This document shows positions 31,753 through 43,422 of a stretch of DNA of 64,000 nucleotides, in pieces. The notes under the pieces are model-generated. The model did no database searches, was not told where the DNA came from, and saw only the letters and a list, made by a program, of their open reading frames with translations. Position numbers and translations under genes: made by a program. The DNA is from Thermosipho melanesiensis BI429 (GTDB lineage: Bacteria > Thermotogota > Thermotogae > Thermotogales > Fervidobacteriaceae): the NCBI RefSeq assembly GCF_000016905.1, contig NC_009616.1:186001-250000 (forward strand), given 5' to 3'. Within the stretch, counting starts at the first letter, position 1. The number at the start of each line of letters is the position of its first letter.

Positions 31753-32505
31753 ATGGAAATAATCTTAGGAATAGTCCAAGGACTAACTGAGTTTTTACCC
31801 ATCTCAAGTTCCGGTCACTTAAGTGTTTTTTCAAAGCTTTTTAATCTCAAGCCAGATTTATCCGTATTTGCGCTTTTACACCTTGCAACATTGGCTGCCA
31901 TTGTTATCTTTGTAGGAAAAGAATTAACTGAAATCATTAAAGGTCTTATAAAATTAGAAAAAAATTACATAAATCTTACTTTAAAAATAATAGTTTCCAC
32001 AATTCCTGCTGCAATTTTTGGTGTTTTATTGGAAAGCAAAATAGAAGCATCACTTTCAAATCTAAAAATCATATCTTTTTTCTTTCTGGTAACAAGTGCA
32101 GCTTTGCTAATTTCAGACAAAATAAAAGGAAATAAGGATTTATCTACCTTGACATATAAAGATGCATTAGTTATTGGAATAATGCAAGCTCTTGCAATAT
32201 TCCCAGGTATATCTAGAAGTGGTTTTACATTGTTTGGATCGCTTCTTATTGGCTTAGAAAGAGAAATTGCATTAAAATATTCCTTTTTAGTTAGTATTCC
32301 AGTAATCTTAGGGGCTGGCTTGTTGGAAATTAAAAACATAAGTCTAAACTCATATTCAATTTCTTCAGCAATAGTAGCGTTTTTTTTCGGCCTGTTAAGC
32401 CTTTTTATACTTAAAAAAGCAACTATCTCAAAAAATCTAAAGATATTTTCTGCTTATTGTATTTTTATTTCCATCTTCTCGTTTGTATTAGGGGGGATAA
32501 AATGA
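31753..32505 (+). CDS. uppP: Undecaprenyl-diphosphatase
   Basis: Recycles the lipid carrier undecaprenyl-PP for peptidoglycan and surface glycans. 250 residues, polytopic. Signatures GIVQGLTEFLPISSSGHL at the start and GISRSG near 158 form the active site. ATG behind AGGAGG. Its position ahead of the glycan block is fitting but may be coincidental. Confidence 0.95.
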   Translation: MEIILGIVQGLTEFLPISSSGHLSVFSKLFNLKPDLSVFALLHLATLAAIVIFVGKELTEIIKGLIKLEKNYINLTLKIIVSTIPAAIFGVLLESKIEASLSNLKIISFFFLVTSAALLISDKIKGNKDLSTLTYKDALVIGIMQALAIFPGISRSGFTLFGSLLIGLEREIALKYSFLVSIPVILGAGLLEIKNISLNSYSISSAIVAFFFGLLSLFILKKATISKNLKIFSAYCIFISIFSFVLGGIK

Positions 32506-35028: not shown

Positions 35029-35670
35029 TTGCTTCCAAGAGAAAAATTATTAACTGAAGGTACGGAAAAATTAGAAAACCATGAATTATTAGCAATATTA
35101 TTGCGAACTGGAACAAAAAATAATAATGTACTTGAAATTTCAAAAAAAATTCTAAACTATTTTGACAACAGCCTTTTAAAATTAAGCAAAGCAAGTATAG
35201 AAGACTTGTGTAAAATAAAAGGACTGGGAAAAGCAAAAGCAACTACCATACTTGCAGCTATGGAACTTTCGAAAAGACTTCTAAACGAAGAAAGAAAAGG
35301 AAAAACATTAAACTCTCCAGAGTTAATATATGAATTCTGCAAGGATATGAAACAATTTGATCAAGAAGTTGTTAGGGTTATAATGCTTAACTCAAAATTA
35401 TCAGTAATATCTTCAAGAGATATTACCATTGGATTAATTGACACAAGTCTTGCACACCCAAGAGAAGTATTTAGAGAAGCTATCAAAAATTCTGCTGTGT
35501 ATATTGTATTAGTACATAACCACCCATCTGGAGATGTTACACCAAGTAAAAATGACAAAGACTTAACCTACAAAGTAAAAGAAGCTGGTGAAATAATTGG
35601 AATTAAACTACTAGATCACGTAATTATTGGAAATGGTTTCTATAGTTTTAAACATAACCGATTGATTTAA
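35029..35670 (+). CDS. radC: RadC/MPN-domain protein
   Basis: 213 residues. N-terminal helix-hairpin-helix (IKGLGKAKATTILAAMELSKR) and a C-terminal JAMM metalloprotease-like motif HNHPSGDVTPSKND. Its role is debated despite the DNA-repair name. TTG start directly after the maf stop, behind AGGAGG. Confidence 0.93.
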   Translation: MLPREKLLTEGTEKLENHELLAILLRTGTKNNNVLEISKKILNYFDNSLLKLSKASIEDLCKIKGLGKAKATTILAAMELSKRLLNEERKGKTLNSPELIYEFCKDMKQFDQEVVRVIMLNSKLSVISSRDITIGLIDTSLAHPREVFREAIKNSAVYIVLVHNHPSGDVTPSKNDKDLTYKVKEAGEIIGIKLLDHVIIGNGFYSFKHNRLI

Positions 35671-35681
35671 GGGGTGTAACC

Positions 35682-36827
35682 ATGACAAATGATGACAAAT
35701 TAAAAAACATACTAAAGTTAAAAAATGAGCTTGAAAAAGAACTTGAAAAAAAGGGACTAAAGAAAATCAATAAAAAGATAAAAAAAGAAAAAACAAACGA
35801 CCTTGAAAGCATCAAAAAACTCAAAGAAAAAATAATTAAAAAAGCAAATATAACTAAAGATAAAAGCTTCACTATCTTCGACATAAACATGCAAGATTAC
35901 GATGCAAGTATTGAAGAAATATTAAACTCTTTAAAAACATTCTCGATTGACAATAAAATTTACAAAGCCTTATTATTTCTTTTAGAATCAAAATTTGATG
36001 AAGTTGAAAAAATCTTAAAGGATAAAGATATATATTCAAAGTACAACTTCTTCTTATCAAAATTATATAAAAGGGAAAATATTTCAAATGAAATAGTCGA
36101 GTTTATAAAAAGCTATCCACAATCTATCTATCCTTTTATCCTACTTTTAGAGTATTACCTTATTAAAGGAACTTCAACCAACTTTTCAAAAATACTATCT
36201 CAACTCTCAAAGATAGATAGCTTTTTCAGTATTATACTTTCTGCATATAGAAAAAAATTAGATGAAGATGAAGTTGTAAAAACCACTATAAAAACCAAAA
36301 AATTCCTACCACTATTACTATATTTTCTTAAAGCCAAAAACTTTGAACCTGAAAAGACAAAAAGTTATTGTCTAAATACGAATTACAGTCTTATCAACGG
36401 AACACCTCCTACAAAAAAAGAATATTGTATAAAAGCTGTTTTTGCAAATGCTGCATGGTCAATTCTAAACGATTACGAATTAAGGCTTGACACGTTAAAA
36501 AAGTTTGAAAAAACACCTGAATATAACTTATTTTTTGGCTTTTTTTATTTTAACAACCAAATAATAGAAAAGTCCAAACTGTTCTTTGAAAAATTCGAAA
36601 AGCAAGTTGAAAGATATTCTATAAAGCTATTTAACCGAAAACATACACATATTGGTTTAAAACAGTTTTGTTACATTCCTAGAGAATATACTAAAGAAGT
36701 ACATGGAAATTTATTAGAAATAGTAGAAAATAATACAGAGTACGATTTCTTCGTAGAATATTACGATCCAGAAATTGTTAGATTGTTGTTTTCAGAAAAG
36801 CACTGTAAATTAGTTTATGGAGGTTAA
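35682..36827 (+). CDS. Uncharacterised lysine-rich helical protein
   Basis: 381 residues, not recognised. The first ~60 are a highly charged coiled coil (LKNELEKELEKKGLKK, then KKIKKEKT). The remainder is predicted all-helical, with TPR-like spacing (KALLFLLESKFDEVEKIL; FFLSKLYKRENIS), and ends in a region with several aromatic residues. There is no signal peptide, so it is cytosolic. It sits directly before the outer-membrane barrel gene of the glycan block, with one base between them, which suggests a scaffold role. Confidence 0.6.
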   Translation: MTNDDKLKNILKLKNELEKELEKKGLKKINKKIKKEKTNDLESIKKLKEKIIKKANITKDKSFTIFDINMQDYDASIEEILNSLKTFSIDNKIYKALLFLLESKFDEVEKILKDKDIYSKYNFFLSKLYKRENISNEIVEFIKSYPQSIYPFILLLEYYLIKGTSTNFSKILSQLSKIDSFFSIILSAYRKKLDEDEVVKTTIKTKKFLPLLLYFLKAKNFEPEKTKSYCLNTNYSLINGTPPTKKEYCIKAVFANAAWSILNDYELRLDTLKKFEKTPEYNLFFGFFYFNNQIIEKSKLFFEKFEKQVERYSIKLFNRKHTHIGLKQFCYIPREYTKEVHGNLLEIVENNTEYDFFVEYYDPEIVRLLFSEKHCKLVYGG

Positions 36828-36828
36828 A

Positions 36829-38235
36829 ATGCGAAAACCAATTTTATTGTTAATATTATTTTCAATCCTTACCTTTTCAGAATTTTTGCTTAATCCTACA
36901 AAAGATTTTAACTTTACACTAAATAACAACATAAAGTTTAATTTGTCGTTTTCATACGGATATTGGAACGTGTTACTTATTGAAAAAGGCGGTGGTGCAG
37001 GAACCGCAATAAATCCCGCAGAAAGTGGTTTCTATGTATTTGACAAAATTCCATCTATTTTAAATTGGGAAATTTTCCTTAAAAAAGATAACTTTATCTT
37101 TTATACAAATATCCCATTTTCCAAAGAAAAAACGGTAATGATAATTGATCCTTTCACAAACTTTTTTTTGAAAAATTTTCGAACTCCATCCTTTGATATG
37201 AACGGTCCTGAAAATTTTTTACTTGCTTATGCGGATAATAAAACATTCCTTGGAATTGGCAGATACCCAATAAAATGGGGAAATTCTATATACCCCATCT
37301 CTATATCTGATACTACATTTCAAGATAATATAACCTTCTCCAAAAAAATAGATTTCTTTAAATACACTTATCATTTAATTTCTTCTTTTCCATTACTTAC
37401 CACTTCTGAAAAAACAATTCAAGAAACCCATTATGATTCTCACACCCCTGGACTATATTTCTCACAACCTTACAAAACCATCATTGCACATAGATTTGAT
37501 TTTTTCTTGTATAACCTTAGAATAGGAATAGGTGAAATAAACGTTGTTGGAGGAAAATTTCTAGATCTAATTGATATAAACCCATTAATGTTCTTCCACA
37601 ATACGTATGGTGAAGGATATTCAAACGTTTTAGCATCTATAGATTTTATGTACAACTTAAAAAAATTCAATATCTTCGGGGAATTTGTATTAGATGATTT
37701 TAACGGCCCAACGGAAATTGGTTCAAACTATAAACCAAACGCATATGGGTATAATTTGGGAGTTAGTTATAAAGATGAAAATCTAAAAATTTGGGGAGAA
37801 TATGATTTTACAAGCGAATGGATGTATATAACAAACTATCTACCATATTTAAGAGTAAATATAAGACACTTTTACTTAGATAACAACCATACCCCTGGAA
37901 GAGCCTTGATAGATTTTCCTTTGGGTTTTAAATATGGACCAGATGCTACTATGGTATCCTTAGGCATTGATTACAAATTTAAGTCATTTAACTTATCATT
38001 TGTATATAATCACTTAATTAAAGGGTGTGTTAACGATAATGGAGTAGATAGATGGAAATGGTTTTGGGATAGTTGGCCTAATAACGTTTCTCCGAAAGGA
38101 AACGAAATTGCCAATTCAAAAGATTTAAGATATAATATATTTGATTTGTTGATAAAGTTTTATAGTTTTTCTATTAATTTATTTAAAATAAATGAAAATA
38201 TTCTATTCATTGCAAATATCGAGGTGGATATATGA
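36829..38235 (+). CDS. Wzi/capsule-assembly-like outer-membrane beta-barrel
   Basis: 468 residues with a signal peptide (about 1-17, ILTFS) and many amphipathic strands. GIGRYPIKWGNSIYPISISD resembles the GR-x-(I/V)-x-WG motif of Wzi-type proteins, and FGEFVLDDF resembles a family strand. Wzi proteins help attach capsule to the cell surface. ATG at 36829 behind GGAGGTTAAA. Similarity is judged by eye and is moderate. Confidence 0.6.
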   Translation: MRKPILLLILFSILTFSEFLLNPTKDFNFTLNNNIKFNLSFSYGYWNVLLIEKGGGAGTAINPAESGFYVFDKIPSILNWEIFLKKDNFIFYTNIPFSKEKTVMIIDPFTNFFLKNFRTPSFDMNGPENFLLAYADNKTFLGIGRYPIKWGNSIYPISISDTTFQDNITFSKKIDFFKYTYHLISSFPLLTTSEKTIQETHYDSHTPGLYFSQPYKTIIAHRFDFFLYNLRIGIGEINVVGGKFLDLIDINPLMFFHNTYGEGYSNVLASIDFMYNLKKFNIFGEFVLDDFNGPTEIGSNYKPNAYGYNLGVSYKDENLKIWGEYDFTSEWMYITNYLPYLRVNIRHFYLDNNHTPGRALIDFPLGFKYGPDATMVSLGIDYKFKSFNLSFVYNHLIKGCVNDNGVDRWKWFWDSWPNNVSPKGNEIANSKDLRYNIFDLLIKFYSFSINLFKINENILFIANIEVDI

Positions 38236-39371
38236 CATACACTACTACATTCTATATAGCAACTATACTAATTTCACTTATTATTGTATTGTACGGAAAG
38301 TACAAAAATGAAAAAAGAACAAATTATTTACATGAAAACAGAAACCCGAAATATTATCCCTTGGTTTCTGTAATTATTCCATGCTATAATGAAGAAGCTG
38401 TGATAGGAAATACTATTAGAGCTGTGGAAAAAAATAGTTACAAAAACTTTGAAATTATAGTAATAGATGATAATTCCACGGATAGTACTTTTGAAATTGC
38501 TAAAGGTTTGGAGAAAGAATACAATAATTTAAAGGTAATTAAAAAGAAAGGTGAAAAAGGAAAACCTCAATCAATCAACGAAGCAATGGAAATTGCAAAA
38601 GGAGAAATCGTATTAATAATTGATGCAGATGCAAGAATTCCAGAAAACTATATATCTTCTCATGTATATTGTTTTTCGAATCCAAAAGTAGAAATGATTT
38701 TCACAAATTTTGAAGCATACAACTTTAGATTCACTCCCGTTTTCATAATCCAAGAGATATATTTTAATTTTGTTAAAACAATCTTTTACTCTAACATAAT
38801 AGTGAAAATGATTTTTATGGGAAATGGTATATTCTTTAGAAAAAGTCTTCTTGAAAGAATTCTTCCTATTGATCCTACAACGCTCGTAGATGATTTTAGT
38901 ATGGCTACTAAACTATCAAAATTAAAAGTAAAAGAATTTTATTCAACATATCCATATATAAAAATTCAATTTGCAAAAAGTTTTAAAGATTTATGGAAAC
39001 AACATAAAAGATGGTACACAGGCGGATTTAGGGAAATGTTTATGCGCATAAAAGAAGGACACCACTCTTATTTGTTTTACTATATGCTAACTGGTCTGGT
39101 AATTTTTCTTCCAGTTATATCTTTATTTGTTGATTTGATATTTCATATAGGTATGTTCAAAATCGTATTTGGATTAATAATGGCCGTATATATTTTATTA
39201 TGGATTAGCTCTCTTGATAGTAGACAATTTGGTTTTTTCTCACTTTTCTATTCCTTTCTTTACGTACCTTTGTTAATGATTTTCGAACTTCTCATACTAG
39301 TTTATAGCTATATAACAGGACCTTTCAACAAAAAACTTCCCTGGGAAAAAGTTGAAAGAGATAAAATTTAA
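38232..39371 (+). CDS. Processive family-2 glycosyltransferase with membrane helices
   Basis: 379 residues. N-terminal helix, GT-A domain (VIIPCYNEEAVIGNT; IDDNSTDST; IIDADARIP; a DDFS acidic pair) and the QxxRW motif of processive enzymes (QHKRWYTGG), followed by three to four helices. This is the layout of poly-GlcNAc and cellulose-type synthases (PgaC-like). It probably makes a polysaccharide at the inner face of the membrane. Sugar specificity unknown. Overlaps the barrel gene by 4 bases. Confidence 0.82.
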   Translation: MTYTTTFYIATILISLIIVLYGKYKNEKRTNYLHENRNPKYYPLVSVIIPCYNEEAVIGNTIRAVEKNSYKNFEIIVIDDNSTDSTFEIAKGLEKEYNNLKVIKKKGEKGKPQSINEAMEIAKGEIVLIIDADARIPENYISSHVYCFSNPKVEMIFTNFEAYNFRFTPVFIIQEIYFNFVKTIFYSNIIVKMIFMGNGIFFRKSLLERILPIDPTTLVDDFSMATKLSKLKVKEFYSTYPYIKIQFAKSFKDLWKQHKRWYTGGFREMFMRIKEGHHSYLFYYMLTGLVIFLPVISLFVDLIFHIGMFKIVFGLIMAVYILLWISSLDSRQFGFFSLFYSFLYVPLLMIFELLILVYSYITGPFNKKLPWEKVERDKI

Positions 39372-39381
39372 AGGTGATAAT

Positions 39382-40125
39382 ATGAAAATTTCTGTAATTG
39401 TTCCTGTTCTAAATGAAGAAAAGACTTTAGAAAAAACACTAAAAAGTATTAAAAATCAAACATATAAAAACTTTGAAATTATTGTTGTAGATAATGGTAG
39501 CACTGATAAATCCGTAGAAATAGCTAGAAAATACACAACTAACATTTTTTTTGAAGAAAAAAAAGGATCTATTAATGCAATCGTTAAAGGCATCAAAAAT
39601 TCAAAAGGCGATATTTTTTTAACTTGTGATGCTGATTCGATTTACCCTAAAAATTACTTTGAAAAAATATTCAAAACATTCAAAAAACACGAAAAAATTT
39701 GTGCTATCTACGGACCATTTATGTTCATAGAAAATGGAAAAATATCAAACTTTTTTACATGGATTTCGTATATAATTATGGATTTTCTTTCAAAGCTGTT
39801 CACAAAAACTTATATTGTAGGTGCTGCAAACTTTGCAATAAAAAGAGAATGTTACTTCAAAGTGGGCGGATATGATATAAAAAGTAATCTTGCTTCACAA
39901 GATTTTCGTCTTGCAAGAAAAATATCAAAAGTCGGAAAAGTTTCCTTCTCACCATTTTTGGTAGTTTTCACATCAAACAGAAGATTTAGAAAAGAAGGTT
40001 TTTTTAAAAGTTTTAAAGAAGCTGTTATTTTATGGGCAGACGTGGCTTTTAACAAAAACAAAATTACTTATGAAAAATACTACACAAAAGAATACTACGG
40101 GAGGAAATATGAAAGAAAAAAATAA
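39382..40125 (+). CDS. Family-2 glycosyltransferase
   Basis: 247 residues. GT-A fold with VIVPVLNEEKTLEKTLKSI, VVDNGSTDKS and the metal-binding TCDADSIYP; SQDFRLARKI corresponds to the acceptor-side acidic motif. There is no QxxRW, so it is non-processive. ATG at 39382 behind AAAGGTGA; the longer frame overlaps the preceding synthase. Confidence 0.82.
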   Translation: MKISVIVPVLNEEKTLEKTLKSIKNQTYKNFEIIVVDNGSTDKSVEIARKYTTNIFFEEKKGSINAIVKGIKNSKGDIFLTCDADSIYPKNYFEKIFKTFKKHEKICAIYGPFMFIENGKISNFFTWISYIIMDFLSKLFTKTYIVGAANFAIKRECYFKVGGYDIKSNLASQDFRLARKISKVGKVSFSPFLVVFTSNRRFRKEGFFKSFKEAVILWADVAFNKNKITYEKYYTKEYYGRKYERKK

Positions 40126-41110
40126 AATAGTAATTGGCATTATATTATCTATTCTAATATCCGGTGTTGTATTATTTTTTTACAGTTTTTCTCTGAATAA
40201 AAATATCATTAATAGTATTTTTTTCTCTTTAAACTATGAAAAATTCATAGTTGCGATTATTTTAGTAACCTTAAGTTTTGTTTTCGATGGGGTAAAACAT
40301 TTTATAGTTTTTAGAATTTTAGACCAAAAAATTGGTATTTTTCCATCAATTAACTCCTGTTTTGTCACAGGATATTTTTCTTCTGTCACACCTTTTTCCG
40401 TAGGAGGACAACCATTTCAAATTTATTATCTTAACAAAAAAGGCGTTGATTCTGCATATGCAACACAGGTGGTTCTTTTAAGATTATTTGAAATGATTTC
40501 GTTAATGTTTTTTATTGATTTAAGCTATATAATCTTTTTTTCACATAATATAACGGGAATTTCTCAAAACATTATTTTTCTTGGCCTAATTTTAACATTT
40601 CTTTCATCTATAGTTATTCTCCTTGGAATTGCTTTTCCTAAAACTATTGGAAAGCTTTTACGCGTATTAAAAAAAGTAAAAATTCTATCAAAAATAGTAA
40701 ATTTTGATAAAATAGAACATTGGTTTCATAAACTAGATATTGTGATAAAAAAAATATTTCGCGAACATAAATGGTTAATTTTTATTGATTTTATAATGAT
40801 GTTCATACTACTGATATTCCAAAGCTATGTATTCTACTATTCGATTAAAATTTTTACCAACATAAATATACCTTTCTTTAAATTCTTTTCCATTGTAAAC
40901 ATTGTTAATGCAGTTGCCTTTTTAGTACCAACGCCTGGCGCAAGCGGTAGTTTTGAAATAATTTATACCAACGTATTTTCTTCTTTTTCACCAAACAAAG
41001 AAGCAATTATAAAAGGTGTGTTGTTTTATAGATTCCTCTCATATTATCTCCTAATAATATTTGGAACGATAATATTACTGCCTTTTGCTTTTAAGAAAGA
41101 CAAAGTTTAG
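40109..41110 (+). CDS. Flippase-like membrane protein (LPG-synthase TM / AglD family)
   Basis: 333 residues, about eight helices. Family motifs VTPFSVGGQPFQIYYLNKKG and VPTPGASGSFEIIY are clear. Members act as lipid-linked sugar flippase-like or glycolipid-handling proteins, or as the membrane half of MprF. No catalytic MprF domain is attached. With the two glycosyltransferases it probably moves or protects a lipid-linked glycan. ATG behind GGGAGG. Confidence 0.8.
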   Translation: MKEKNKIVIGIILSILISGVVLFFYSFSLNKNIINSIFFSLNYEKFIVAIILVTLSFVFDGVKHFIVFRILDQKIGIFPSINSCFVTGYFSSVTPFSVGGQPFQIYYLNKKGVDSAYATQVVLLRLFEMISLMFFIDLSYIIFFSHNITGISQNIIFLGLILTFLSSIVILLGIAFPKTIGKLLRVLKKVKILSKIVNFDKIEHWFHKLDIVIKKIFREHKWLIFIDFIMMFILLIFQSYVFYYSIKIFTNINIPFFKFFSIVNIVNAVAFLVPTPGASGSFEIIYTNVFSSFSPNKEAIIKGVLFYRFLSYYLLIIFGTIILLPFAFKKDKV

Positions 41111-43422
41111 TTTTTATCAATACCATTTAAAAATACAAAAATACTTACAAACCATGAAATTAATAAACCTAACCCTACAAGCTCGCCAAATTCCTTTAAT
41201 AACTCACCTTGAGCTAACATAAAACTCCCAAAAGCCATCATTGTTGTCAAAACTGATACAGTCACTGCTTTTTCAGTTTTCATTATACTTTCTCTTCCGT
41301 GCTTTATACTATGTGCTAAATGCACCATACTATCAACACCTATTCCCAAAAAAATTGGTACAATTAGTAAATTCAAAAAGGTTAAATTTATCTTTAATAC
41401 AAAATAACCTATTCCTATTGTAGACAATATAGATAAAATGACTAAAAAAGATATTTGCAAAGATCTTTTAAAACTTCTCTGATCAATTAATAAAGTCAAT
41501 ACAATTGCCATAAACACAAAATAAACGGCTTTTGTTGTTGAATTAATAAGGTATACCATTACTTTGTAAAAAAGTGCAGGATACCCAAATACTCTTTCCC
41601 CCTTTAATTCCTCATCAAATATCTTTTTTAGATTATTGTTAGTCCATAACCCTATTTTTTCCTTAGCATACAATAAATAATACCTTTTCCCATCTGAATC
41701 GTAAAAAAATAAAGATGGCATATCCTTTTCTATACTAGCTATAACATCTTCAAATGTTTTGGCAGATTGTAACAAGCTCAAAGTTTCTATTAAACTGTTA
41801 TACAACCCATATTTTTTAAATATTATATCCAAAATCGGTTCACTAACTATTTGATTAATTTTCCCGTAAAATGTAGGAGATATTTCTTTTAATCTTGATG
41901 GATCATCCATAAAAGATAAAATCGAAAAAGTATTTGAAAAATATTTTGAATTTTCTACCTTCTCCTTTAAACGTTTTAAATCCTCAAAGTTTTCAGCTCC
42001 AAGCACAACTTGTCCTATTCCAAAATCTCCAAATTTTTCCTCTGCAACACTTAATGCAATCATTGCTTCTGATTTTTCTGGAACAAGTCCAGGAGGTGTA
42101 TATGAAAAATTCTTAACTGCAAAATACGCGCCAAAACCTGTTACTAAAACTACAACCCAAACAAAAACAGTTATTGGTTTAAATTTTCTGACAAATTCTA
42201 AAAATCTCGAGAAATATTCTCTTTTTGGTATTCTAATTCTCGAAAAGAACTTTGCATATAATGCAGGAATTAAAAAATTCATAAAAATGTAGAATATTAA
42301 AACACCAATCCCCGAAGAAATTCCCATTTCTTTTAAGGGTTTAGAAGGACTCAAAGCAAGTGCAAATAAAGAAATTGCCGTTGTAATTGCTGAAACAAAT
42401 GAAGGCACAAAATTTTCTTTTATCGCTTCTACTATACTTTGTGTTGATTTCCCATAAATTCTTAAATTTTCATGGATTTTTGCAGTAATATGGATCCCAT
42501 AGTCTATACCAAGTCCCAATAACATTGCATTGACAAAAGAAGTTACAATATTTACCTCTTTAAACAGAAAAACTATAATTCCTAAACTTGTACCCATTGC
42601 AAGAATCATTGAATACAACATAAATAGCATCGAACTAGTACTTCCGTATGAAACCAGAAGTAACAAAGATATTCCAATTAGAGAAACAAAAGTAGTAATT
42701 TGAAAATCCTTTGAAACCTGTAAATTTCCAGTGTAATTATTCATGGCAGAACCACTAAATAATATATTAACTCCAAATTTATCTGAGATATCTTTGGAAA
42801 TTCTCTTTAAAAATGGTATGGCATCATTTAAAAAGTTCACATCTGTTACAGGTTTGCTCATTGAAAAATTCATTAACATTAAACTTTTATCTTCAGATAT
42901 AAGATAGTATTTTTTTATACCACTTCTTGAAAAAAAATCATTTGCAAAGTCTGAAACAGTTGAAATTGCAACTCCTAAATTTCTCCAAAACCTAAAATCA
43001 ATAACTGAACGAGGTTCTACATTTACAACAGCACTGTAATATCCCAAAATATTATCTATACTATTCTCGTCAACTGTAAATATCCCATACTTTATTAAAT
43101 TTTCCGGATTATCAAATGCTTCTGCTTTTGATATATATTCCGTCTTTTCAAACGCATCTTTTATTCTTAATGCAACTTCATTGATGTTCACCTTATTATT
43201 AAGTTCAACTACTATTAATAACGTATTTGAGACAACCTTTTCCTCGGTAAATTTAACTAAATCCTTAAACTCCTTTATATTATCAGGGGCAAGTTCCGTT
43301 AATTCTGCATTAACCTTTAGATTGAATATACTATATAATCCCAACAAAAAGCCTAAAATACTAAACGTGATTAAAATAACCAAAGATTTCTTTATCAAAA
43401 AATTCCCTAATTTTTCAATCAC
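41107..43422 (-). CDS. RND/MMPL-family exporter
   Basis: 771 residues in two repeats. N-terminal helix (about 13-33), a large outside domain, then five or six helices (about 225-370); the pattern repeats in the second half. The conserved charged helix motif is seen twice: LGLGIDYGIHITAKI and LGIGVDSMVHLAHSI. No outer-membrane or adaptor partner is adjacent. HpnN and MmpL relatives move lipids, so lipid export is a reasonable guess. The stop overlaps the convergent flippase stop by 4 bases. Confidence 0.82.
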   Translation of the reverse strand: MIEKLGNFLIKKSLVILITFSILGFLLGLYSIFNLKVNAELTELAPDNIKEFKDLVKFTEEKVVSNTLLIVVELNNKVNINEVALRIKDAFEKTEYISKAEAFDNPENLIKYGIFTVDENSIDNILGYYSAVVNVEPRSVIDFRFWRNLGVAISTVSDFANDFFSRSGIKKYYLISEDKSLMLMNFSMSKPVTDVNFLNDAIPFLKRISKDISDKFGVNILFSGSAMNNYTGNLQVSKDFQITTFVSLIGISLLLLVSYGSTSSMLFMLYSMILAMGTSLGIIVFLFKEVNIVTSFVNAMLLGLGIDYGIHITAKIHENLRIYGKSTQSIVEAIKENFVPSFVSAITTAISLFALALSPSKPLKEMGISSGIGVLIFYIFMNFLIPALYAKFFSRIRIPKREYFSRFLEFVRKFKPITVFVWVVVLVTGFGAYFAVKNFSYTPPGLVPEKSEAMIALSVAEEKFGDFGIGQVVLGAENFEDLKRLKEKVENSKYFSNTFSILSFMDDPSRLKEISPTFYGKINQIVSEPILDIIFKKYGLYNSLIETLSLLQSAKTFEDVIASIEKDMPSLFFYDSDGKRYYLLYAKEKIGLWTNNNLKKIFDEELKGERVFGYPALFYKVMVYLINSTTKAVYFVFMAIVLTLLIDQRSFKRSLQISFLVILSILSTIGIGYFVLKINLTFLNLLIVPIFLGIGVDSMVHLAHSIKHGRESIMKTEKAVTVSVLTTMMAFGSFMLAQGELLKEFGELVGLGLLISWFVSIFVFLNGIDKN

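What the first reader, a model, noticed from the sequence alone, without database searches (positions are those of the whole stretch)
35682..41110. Candidate surface-glycan locus: helical protein, Wzi-like barrel, two GT2, flippase-like protein
Five consecutive, partly overlapping genes combine a processive GT2 with QxxRW, a second GT2, a membrane protein of the AglD/LPG-synthase class, and an exported barrel with a GRYPIKWG motif like capsule-assembly Wzi proteins. No ABC exporter or Wza/Wzc set is present, so export would follow an unusual route. An uncharacterised coiled-coil/TPR-like protein leads the block, and uppP lies upstream. This is the best candidate for an undescribed system in the window, possibly a toga-associated polysaccharide.
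Basis: partly seen in the sequence, partly recalled or inferred. Interest (0 to 1): 0.6.

Follow-up and report, generated by a model that had tools for sequence, protein, structure and literature searches.

The report
Wzi-like barrel beside a glycolipid cassette
The five genes of this Thermosipho-type bacterium are not one surface-polysaccharide system: a DNA-repair-linked neighbour, an outer-membrane barrel related to capsule protein Wzi, and a three-gene set that most likely builds and flips membrane sugar-lipids happen to sit side by side.

Summary
The five ORFs are real, but they are three unrelated modules. (1) The helical protein follows maf-radC across three families in genomes with no barrel or GT genes there; it is not a glycan gene. 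(2) The barrel is a genuine Wzi-fold protein (AlphaFold pTM 0.78; best structural match E. coli Wzi, Z 24.1). Elsewhere in the phylum it sits near Wza-family (OPX) and Wzc-family (PCP) genes, within 10 kb of OPX in 15 of 38 genomes with both. The window's own genome has an OPX/PCP pair 0.48 Mb away, plus Wzx and a priming transferase, so "no Wza/Wzc" holds only for the window. (3) The trio GT2-GT2-flippase-like protein most likely makes membrane glycolipid. Every one of 52 near-complete Thermotogota genomes has this GT2 or an alpha-monoglucosyl-diacylglycerol-synthase-like GT4, and the usual form of that GT4 never co-occurs with it (0 of 16 versus 34 of 36). A congener carries such a GT4 in the very slot of the trio, and flippase-like relatives adjoin DAG-glucosyltransferase-like genes in 11 of 11 cases. 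The predicted GT2-for-GT4 swap is the interesting part; enzyme activity is untested.

The parts
35682..36827 (+). Helical, TPR-like cytosolic protein (381 aa), member of the conserved maf-radC-helical cluster; judged not part of any glycan system
   Evidence: Directly follows radC in families f1, f2, f3 without barrel/GTs; absent in genus g4 where radC is followed directly by the barrel. No TM segment by hydropathy. Weak TPR profile hit to BBS4, E 0.002. Single-sequence AF2 unusable, pLDDT 42.
36829..38235 (+). Wzi-like outer-membrane beta-barrel, about 18 long strands, signal peptide MRKPILLLILFSILTFS, little room for an N-terminal helical plug
   Evidence: AF2 pLDDT 73, pTM 0.78; VIA best hit 2YNK Wzi Z 24.1, rmsd 3.3, 328 aligned; PF14052 sub-threshold.
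38232..39371 (+). GT2A: integral-membrane family-2 glycosyltransferase, D/DxD/D/QxxRW, 1 N-terminal and 3 C-terminal TM segments; predicted DAG-type lipid glycosyltransferase
   Evidence: PF00535 E 2e-31; invariant catalytic residues; TM layout; mutual exclusion with the common alMGS-like GT4.
39382..40125 (+). GT2B: family-2 glycosyltransferase without TM segments, predicted second-sugar transferase
   Evidence: PF00535 E 6e-35, conserved DAD and RR residues, present in 12 of 61 genomes, beside GT2A where the neighbourhood was read.
40109..41110 (+). LPG_synthase_TM / TIGR00374 flippase-like membrane protein (7 TM by hydropathy), predicted glycolipid translocator
   Evidence: PF03706 E 1e-34, TIGR00374; relatives directly adjacent to alDGS-like genes in 11 of 11 genomes checked, and to alMGS-like genes.
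31753..32505 (+). uppP (BacA), upstream housekeeping gene, not specific to the trio
   Evidence: PF02673 E 3e-67; stays in this block in g1, g4, g5.
35029..35670 (+). radC-like gene, true neighbour of the helical gene
   Evidence: PF04002 E 1e-40; radC-helical adjacency in other families.
41107..43422 (-). MMPL/RND-type membrane protein that closes the block on the opposite strand
   Evidence: PF03176 E 5e-25; bounds the variable slot in all g1, g4, g5 genomes read.

Best explanation
The block holds three modules. (a) The helical protein is part of the maf-radC cluster. (b) The barrel is the outer-membrane, Wzi-like component of the phylum's OPX/PCP polysaccharide export pathway, whose other parts lie elsewhere in this genome: OPX and PCP at 0.70 Mb; priming transferase, GTs, dTDP-rhamnose genes, an 8-TM Wzy candidate and a Wzx at 1.09-1.10 Mb. 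(c) GT2A, GT2B and the LPG_TM protein form a membrane-glycolipid cassette. GT2A puts the first sugar on diacylglycerol, taking the place of the alMGS-type GT4 of other Thermotogota. GT2B adds a second sugar. LPG_TM moves the glycolipid to the outer leaflet. Shown here: families, predicted fold of the barrel, gene neighbourhoods, mutual exclusion with the common alMGS-like GT4. Inferred: substrates, order of sugars, flipping, and that the barrel acts with the distant OPX/PCP pair.
For: Barrel: Wzi is the top structural match with a clear gap (Z 24.1 versus 19.2). PCP-OPX-barrel are contiguous in L139, L141, L189, L197, L198 and L199; the barrel lies within 10 kb of OPX in 15 of 38 genomes with both, and within 25 kb in 20. 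Own OPX and PCP; own Wzx, priming transferase and rhamnose cluster. Trio: alMGS-like GT4 is missing in 12 of 52 near-complete genomes and all 12 have GT2A; no near-complete genome lacks both. The common alMGS form is in 0 of 16 GT2A genomes and 34 of 36 others (forms told apart by identity and the tree). In the 12 genomes lacking it the best remaining GT4 is 7e-24, against 1e-59 or better for accepted hits. Congener G002 lacks GT2A and GT2B and carries LPG_TM plus an alMGS-like GT4 in the same slot, each closest to the matching gene of one distant genome, G050 (68% and 83%), where they are adjacent. LPG_TM relatives abut alDGS-like GT4 in 11 of 11 genomes checked; in G056 the trio is followed by a PlsC-like acyltransferase and lies about 4 kb from an alMGS/LPG_TM/alDGS cluster. 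Precedents: C. difficile HexSDF with an MprF-like flippase (PMC10128005), Listeria LafABC (PMC2764115), integral-membrane MgdA (PMC3916417).
Against: No enzyme of the trio has a tested substrate. The exclusion pattern rests on perhaps four independent lineages, so the Fisher values overstate it (genus-level p 7e-4). Four genomes have both GT2A and an alMGS-like gene, in two of them adjacent, so they may be partners rather than substitutes. In G042 the LPG_TM/GT2A-like pair lies beside a PelG exporter gene, a polysaccharide context, though not in its congener G043. GT28-type DAG glycosyltransferases were not searched for. Most genomes of family f2 have OPX without the barrel, so the barrel is not essential for OPX function.
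Confidence: 0.6

Rival explanations
1. One reading: a minimal synthase-type exopolysaccharide system in which GT2A polymerises and extrudes a glycan, the barrel is its outer-membrane porin, as in Alg, Pga or Bcs systems, and the flippase-like protein assists.
For: Barrel gene and GT2A overlap by 4 bases and stay together in g1, g4 and g5. The GT2A profile covers bacterial cellulose synthase including TM parts and its best NCBIfam hit is PgaC_IcaA, far below cut-off. Foldseek ranks AlgE first for the barrel. Pel-type genes adjoin the related pair in G042.
Against: The whole 15-kb block is syntenic in those genera, so linkage is weak evidence. The barrel is present without close GT2A in Fervidobacterium and Thermotoga and with OPX/PCP elsewhere. 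GT2A has only about 4 TM segments. Exclusion with the alMGS-like GT4 is unexplained by this model. VIA puts Wzi well above AlgE (24.1 versus 18.4).
Confidence: 0.15
2. The trio assembles a polyprenol-linked oligosaccharide (AglD/DPMS-like) for protein glycosylation or as repeat unit of the OPX-exported polymer; LPG_TM flips it and uppP recycles the carrier.
For: The LPG_TM class occurs fused to GT2 in archaeal AglD (own knowledge); uppP is upstream; GT2B resembles TIGR04283-type GT2.
Against: uppP is a housekeeping gene of the block; no oligosaccharyltransferase or ligase gene was recognised next to the trio; LPG_TM relatives sit with DAG glucosyltransferases and, for paralogues, CDP-alcohol phosphatidyltransferases.
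Confidence: 0.15
3. The barrel is a general porin or solute channel of the OprD type with no role in polysaccharide export.
For: OprD-family porins are the next structural group at Z about 19; no OPX near the barrel in this genome.
Against: Wzi stands clearly on top, and OPX/PCP adjacency recurs in many lineages.
Confidence: 0.15

Closest known systems
E. coli Wzi (PDB 2YNK, PF14052)
   Same: Barrel of about 18 strands with signal peptide; clearly best structural match; in related genomes encoded beside Wza- and Wzc-family genes
   Different: Little room for the N-terminal three-helix plug ahead of strand 1; 16% identity over aligned residues; sugar binding untested
OPX/beta-barrel translocons (Wzp/EpsX; PMC9603273, PMC9601211)
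   Same: An outer-membrane barrel gene beside an OPX and PCP gene in relatives
   Different: Thermotogota OPX proteins are very long (823 to about 1230 aa) where myxobacterial ones are about 200 aa; in this genome barrel and OPX are 0.48 Mb apart
alMGS / alDGS (GT4) diacylglycerol glucosyltransferases
   Same: Predicted same pathway; their relatives occur next to LPG_TM proteins; complementary distribution
   Different: GT2A is a GT2 integral-membrane enzyme, a different glycosyltransferase family from GT4
Synechocystis MgdA (Sll1377) monoglucosyl-DAG synthase (PMC3916417)
   Same: Integral-membrane enzyme with N-terminal and three C-terminal TM helices flanking the catalytic domain; its GT2 membership is from own knowledge
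   Different: Sequence not compared here; MgdA has 5 predicted TM, GT2A about 4
C. difficile HexSDF (PMC10128005) and Listeria LafABC (PMC2764115)
   Same: Glycolipid glycosyltransferase genes in an operon with a membrane protein; HexF is an MprF-like flippase
   Different: Different GT families; no deacetylase gene; LafC and HexF were not compared by sequence

Membership tests
Wzi capsule assembly proteins (PF14052) | Wzi barrel fold | tested here: met
   Predicted model against 2YNK: Z 24.1, rmsd 3.3, 328 of 441 residues aligned
Wzi capsule assembly proteins (PF14052) | Score over Pfam gathering threshold | tested here: not met
   26.7 bits against 30.1 for the window protein; 7 of 20 relatives match, best E 1e-10. 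Called Wzi-like, not a Wzi family member.
Wzi capsule assembly proteins (PF14052) | N-terminal three-helix periplasmic plug | tested here: inconclusive
   First strand begins at residue 38 of the model (34 counted from the likely start), leaving about 15 residues after the signal peptide; N-terminal model confidence below 50
Wzi capsule assembly proteins (PF14052) | Binding of the capsular polymer | not testable with these tools
   Needs protein and polymer
Wzx/Wzy-OPX-PCP export pathway | OPX and PCP genes in the genome | tested here: met
   OPX at 700.9 kb and Wzz/GNVR PCP beside it
Wzx/Wzy-OPX-PCP export pathway | Barrel linked to OPX in relatives | tested here: met
   Within 10 kb in 15 of 38 genomes; contiguous PCP-OPX-barrel in six loci. 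Not linked in the window's own genome.
Synthase-dependent exopolysaccharide secretion (Pga/Bcs/Alg type) | Membrane GT2 with catalytic D, DxD, D, QxxRW | tested here: met
   Residues present and invariant; processivity itself not testable here
Synthase-dependent exopolysaccharide secretion (Pga/Bcs/Alg type) | Dedicated porin linked to the synthase across relatives, with a co-polymerase or c-di-GMP partner | tested here: not met
   No such partner recognised among block genes; barrel and GT2A are unlinked outside g1, g4, g5 in the loci read
Membrane glycolipid (DAG glycosyltransferase) pathway | Enzyme acts on diacylglycerol | not testable with these tools
   Only phyletic and neighbourhood evidence
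Membrane glycolipid (DAG glycosyltransferase) pathway | Genomic association with lipid headgroup enzymes | tested here: met
   LPG_TM adjoins alDGS-like in 11 of 11; alMGS-like, PlsC-like and CDP-alcohol transferase neighbours

The most novel reading that the evidence does not exclude
Barrel and trio work together after all: the cassette makes and flips a glycolipid that carries or anchors a surface glycan, and the Wzi-like barrel organises it at the outer membrane, giving these bacteria a lipoglycan in place of lipopolysaccharide.
Probability: 0.1. Interest if true: 0.7.

Novelty: new variant of a known kind. Interest (0 to 1): 0.42.

Why it matters
If the trio reading holds, two different glycosyltransferase families (GT4 and GT2) replace each other at the first step of the main membrane glycolipid pathway within one thermophilic phylum, and a congener shows the swap in a single chromosomal slot. 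That makes glycolipid evolution in Thermotogota, described biochemically only for T. maritima in the papers read here, directly testable. It also links PF03706 flippase-like proteins to glycolipids in diderm bacteria. The barrel result predicts a Wzc-Wza-Wzi type export machine across much of the phylum, in cells with a toga envelope, and corrects the idea that export here follows an unusual route.

Tried and rejected
Single-sequence structure prediction of the helical protein gave pLDDT 42 and was not used. The sequence profile of the barrel found no solved structure, so the Wzi assignment rests on the predicted fold and on sub-threshold Pfam hits. An apparent frameshift in GT2A of G023 (L124), which looked like a decaying gene next to an alMGS-like gene, is a run of N in the assembly and was dropped. 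Operon overlap was considered as evidence for one system and rejected, because the same tight spacing runs through housekeeping genes upstream and the whole block is syntenic in related genera. The genome has only four GT2 (PF00535) domains, two of them here, which alone does not show a polysaccharide locus. Literature searches found no work on PF03706 with glycosyltransferases and flippases nor on Thermosipho glycolipid genes.

Full report
What is there. The five ORFs are real and lie head to tail with junctions of +11, +1, -4, +10 and -17 bases from radC onward. The window is bases 186001-250000 of a single-contig genome of 1,915,238 bases. Named relatives retrieved by the barrel include Thermosipho and Fervidobacterium.

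Module 1, the helical protein. It is a 381-aa protein with no TM segment by hydropathy. It is found in 37 of 61 related genomes. In the Fervidobacterium-like genera, in family f3 and in family f2 it directly follows radC and maf, with no barrel or GT gene nearby. In genus g4 it is missing and radC is followed by the barrel. It therefore belongs to the maf-radC neighbourhood. A profile search gives a weak TPR hit. Its function stays open.

Module 2, the barrel. Pfam sees Wzi below its cut-off; 7 of 20 relatives are hit, the best at 1e-10. AlphaFold with 19 sequences gives pLDDT 73 and pTM 0.78. VIA-align ranks E. coli Wzi first (Z 24.1, rmsd 3.3, 328 residues), then OprD-type porins (19.2) and AlgE (18.4); Foldseek ranks AlgE first. 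Wzi has a three-helix N-terminal plug and binds capsule (PMC3791409). Here strand 1 begins at residue 38 of the model, about 15 residues after the signal peptide, so there is little room for a plug. Plugless Wzi-type barrels near OPX genes have been reported (PMC9603273).

The barrel is found in 40 of 61 genomes, and 38 of these also have an OPX gene by the Poly_export domain. It lies within 10 kb of OPX in 15 and within 25 kb in 20. Two genes placed at random on a 2-Mb chromosome would lie within 10 kb in about 1% of genomes. PCP, OPX and barrel are contiguous in L139, L141, L189, L197, L198 and L199. The window's own genome carries OPX (823 aa, Poly_export plus SLBB) and beside it a 671-aa Wzz/GNVR protein with an autokinase-like end, but 478 kb from the barrel. 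It also has a priming transferase with dTDP-rhamnose genes, GTs, an 8-TM protein and a Wzx at 1.09-1.10 Mb. So the barrel most likely serves an ordinary, dispersed OPX/PCP pathway. That it acts with the distant OPX is inferred.

Module 3, the trio. GT2A has all residues of the membrane GT2 class and TM segments at 4-22, 286-304, 306-324 and 339-357. This layout resembles the integral-membrane glycolipid synthase MgdA, with helices on both sides of the catalytic domain (PMC3916417). QxxRW alone does not prove processivity. Close GT2A relatives occur in 16 of 61 genomes at E 1e-60 or better.

The key evidence came from a congener, G002. There the barrel is kept but GT2A and GT2B are gone. In their slot lie a different flippase-like gene, an unknown gene and a GT4 whose best family is alpha-monoglucosyl-diacylglycerol synthase (E 1e-56, below its cut-off). 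This GT4 type is in 47 of 61 genomes. Of 52 genomes at least 90% complete, the 12 that lack it all have GT2A, and none lacks both. The phylum's common form of the GT4 occurs in 0 of 16 GT2A genomes and 34 of 36 others (p 1.5e-11, inflated by shared ancestry; the genus-level test on presence of any form gives 7e-4). A laxer search shows that the 12 have only remote GT4 paralogues, best E 7e-24. Four genomes carry GT2A and an alMGS-like gene of another form; in two the genes are adjacent.

The flippase-like gene tells the same story. Relatives lie 10-29 bases from, or overlap, an alDGS-like gene in 11 of 11 genomes checked. In G056 a GT2A-GT2B-flippase-PlsC-like cluster lies about 4 kb from an alMGS-flippase-alDGS cluster. 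Other paralogues sit with CDP-alcohol phosphatidyltransferases. The G002 flippase and GT4 are each closest to their adjacent counterparts in one distant genome, G050, as if moved together. T. maritima makes mono- and diglucosyl diacylglycerols (PMC8788747), so a first-sugar enzyme is expected in the phylum. C. difficile HexSDF and Listeria LafABC are operons of similar logic.

Counter-evidence. In G042 the flippase/GT2A-like pair lies next to PelG and DUF2194, a polysaccharide setting, though not in congener G043. No activity is known. GT28-type enzymes were not searched. The number of independent swaps is small.

Verdict. The unified surface-glycan system is not supported. The barrel is a Wzi-like protein of a known kind of machine; the trio is a probable new GT2-based variant of membrane glycolipid synthesis.

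Noticed in passing
L271:4252-7578 (G000:C1, about 905-908.6 kb): An aminoethylphosphonate-transaminase-like gene (PhnW/AepZ E 5e-47), a nucleotidyltransferase, a CDP-alcohol phosphatidyltransferase and a flippase-like paralogue lie in a row: a candidate phosphonolipid or phospholipid headgroup locus. L118 and L119 have a related set with a fused nucleotidyltransferase/aminotransferase.
   Followed up: partly
L180:16660-19128 and OPX genes in L138, L141, L185-L189, L205: Thermotogota OPX proteins are unusually long (823 to about 1230 aa, several SLBB domains) and end in a short tail after the last SLBB that could be an amphipathic helix; no Wza_C Pfam hit in the own copy.
   Followed up: partly
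L117:614-6112 (G042): PelG exporter (PF16933, E 4e-104) and a DUF2194 protein beside the flippase-like/GT2A-like pair.
   Followed up: partly
L092:9262-10098 (G002): 279-aa protein without any Pfam or NCBIfam match, between the flippase-like gene and the alMGS-like gene in the swapped slot.
   Followed up: no
window 35682-36827 and L111-L115, L127: Conserved maf-radC-helical protein cluster across Thermotogota families; the helical protein is uncharacterised and may work with RadC.
   Followed up: partly
L108, L120, L138, L143-L145, L147: Tandem pairs of Wzi-like barrels in several Thermotogota families, the second copy usually more divergent.
   Followed up: no
L192:816-12001 (G000:C1, 1.088-1.100 Mb): Wzx/Wzy-type cluster with priming transferase, GT4s, a UDP-glucose/GDP-mannose dehydrogenase-family gene and dTDP-rhamnose genes in the window's own genome.
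   Followed up: partly
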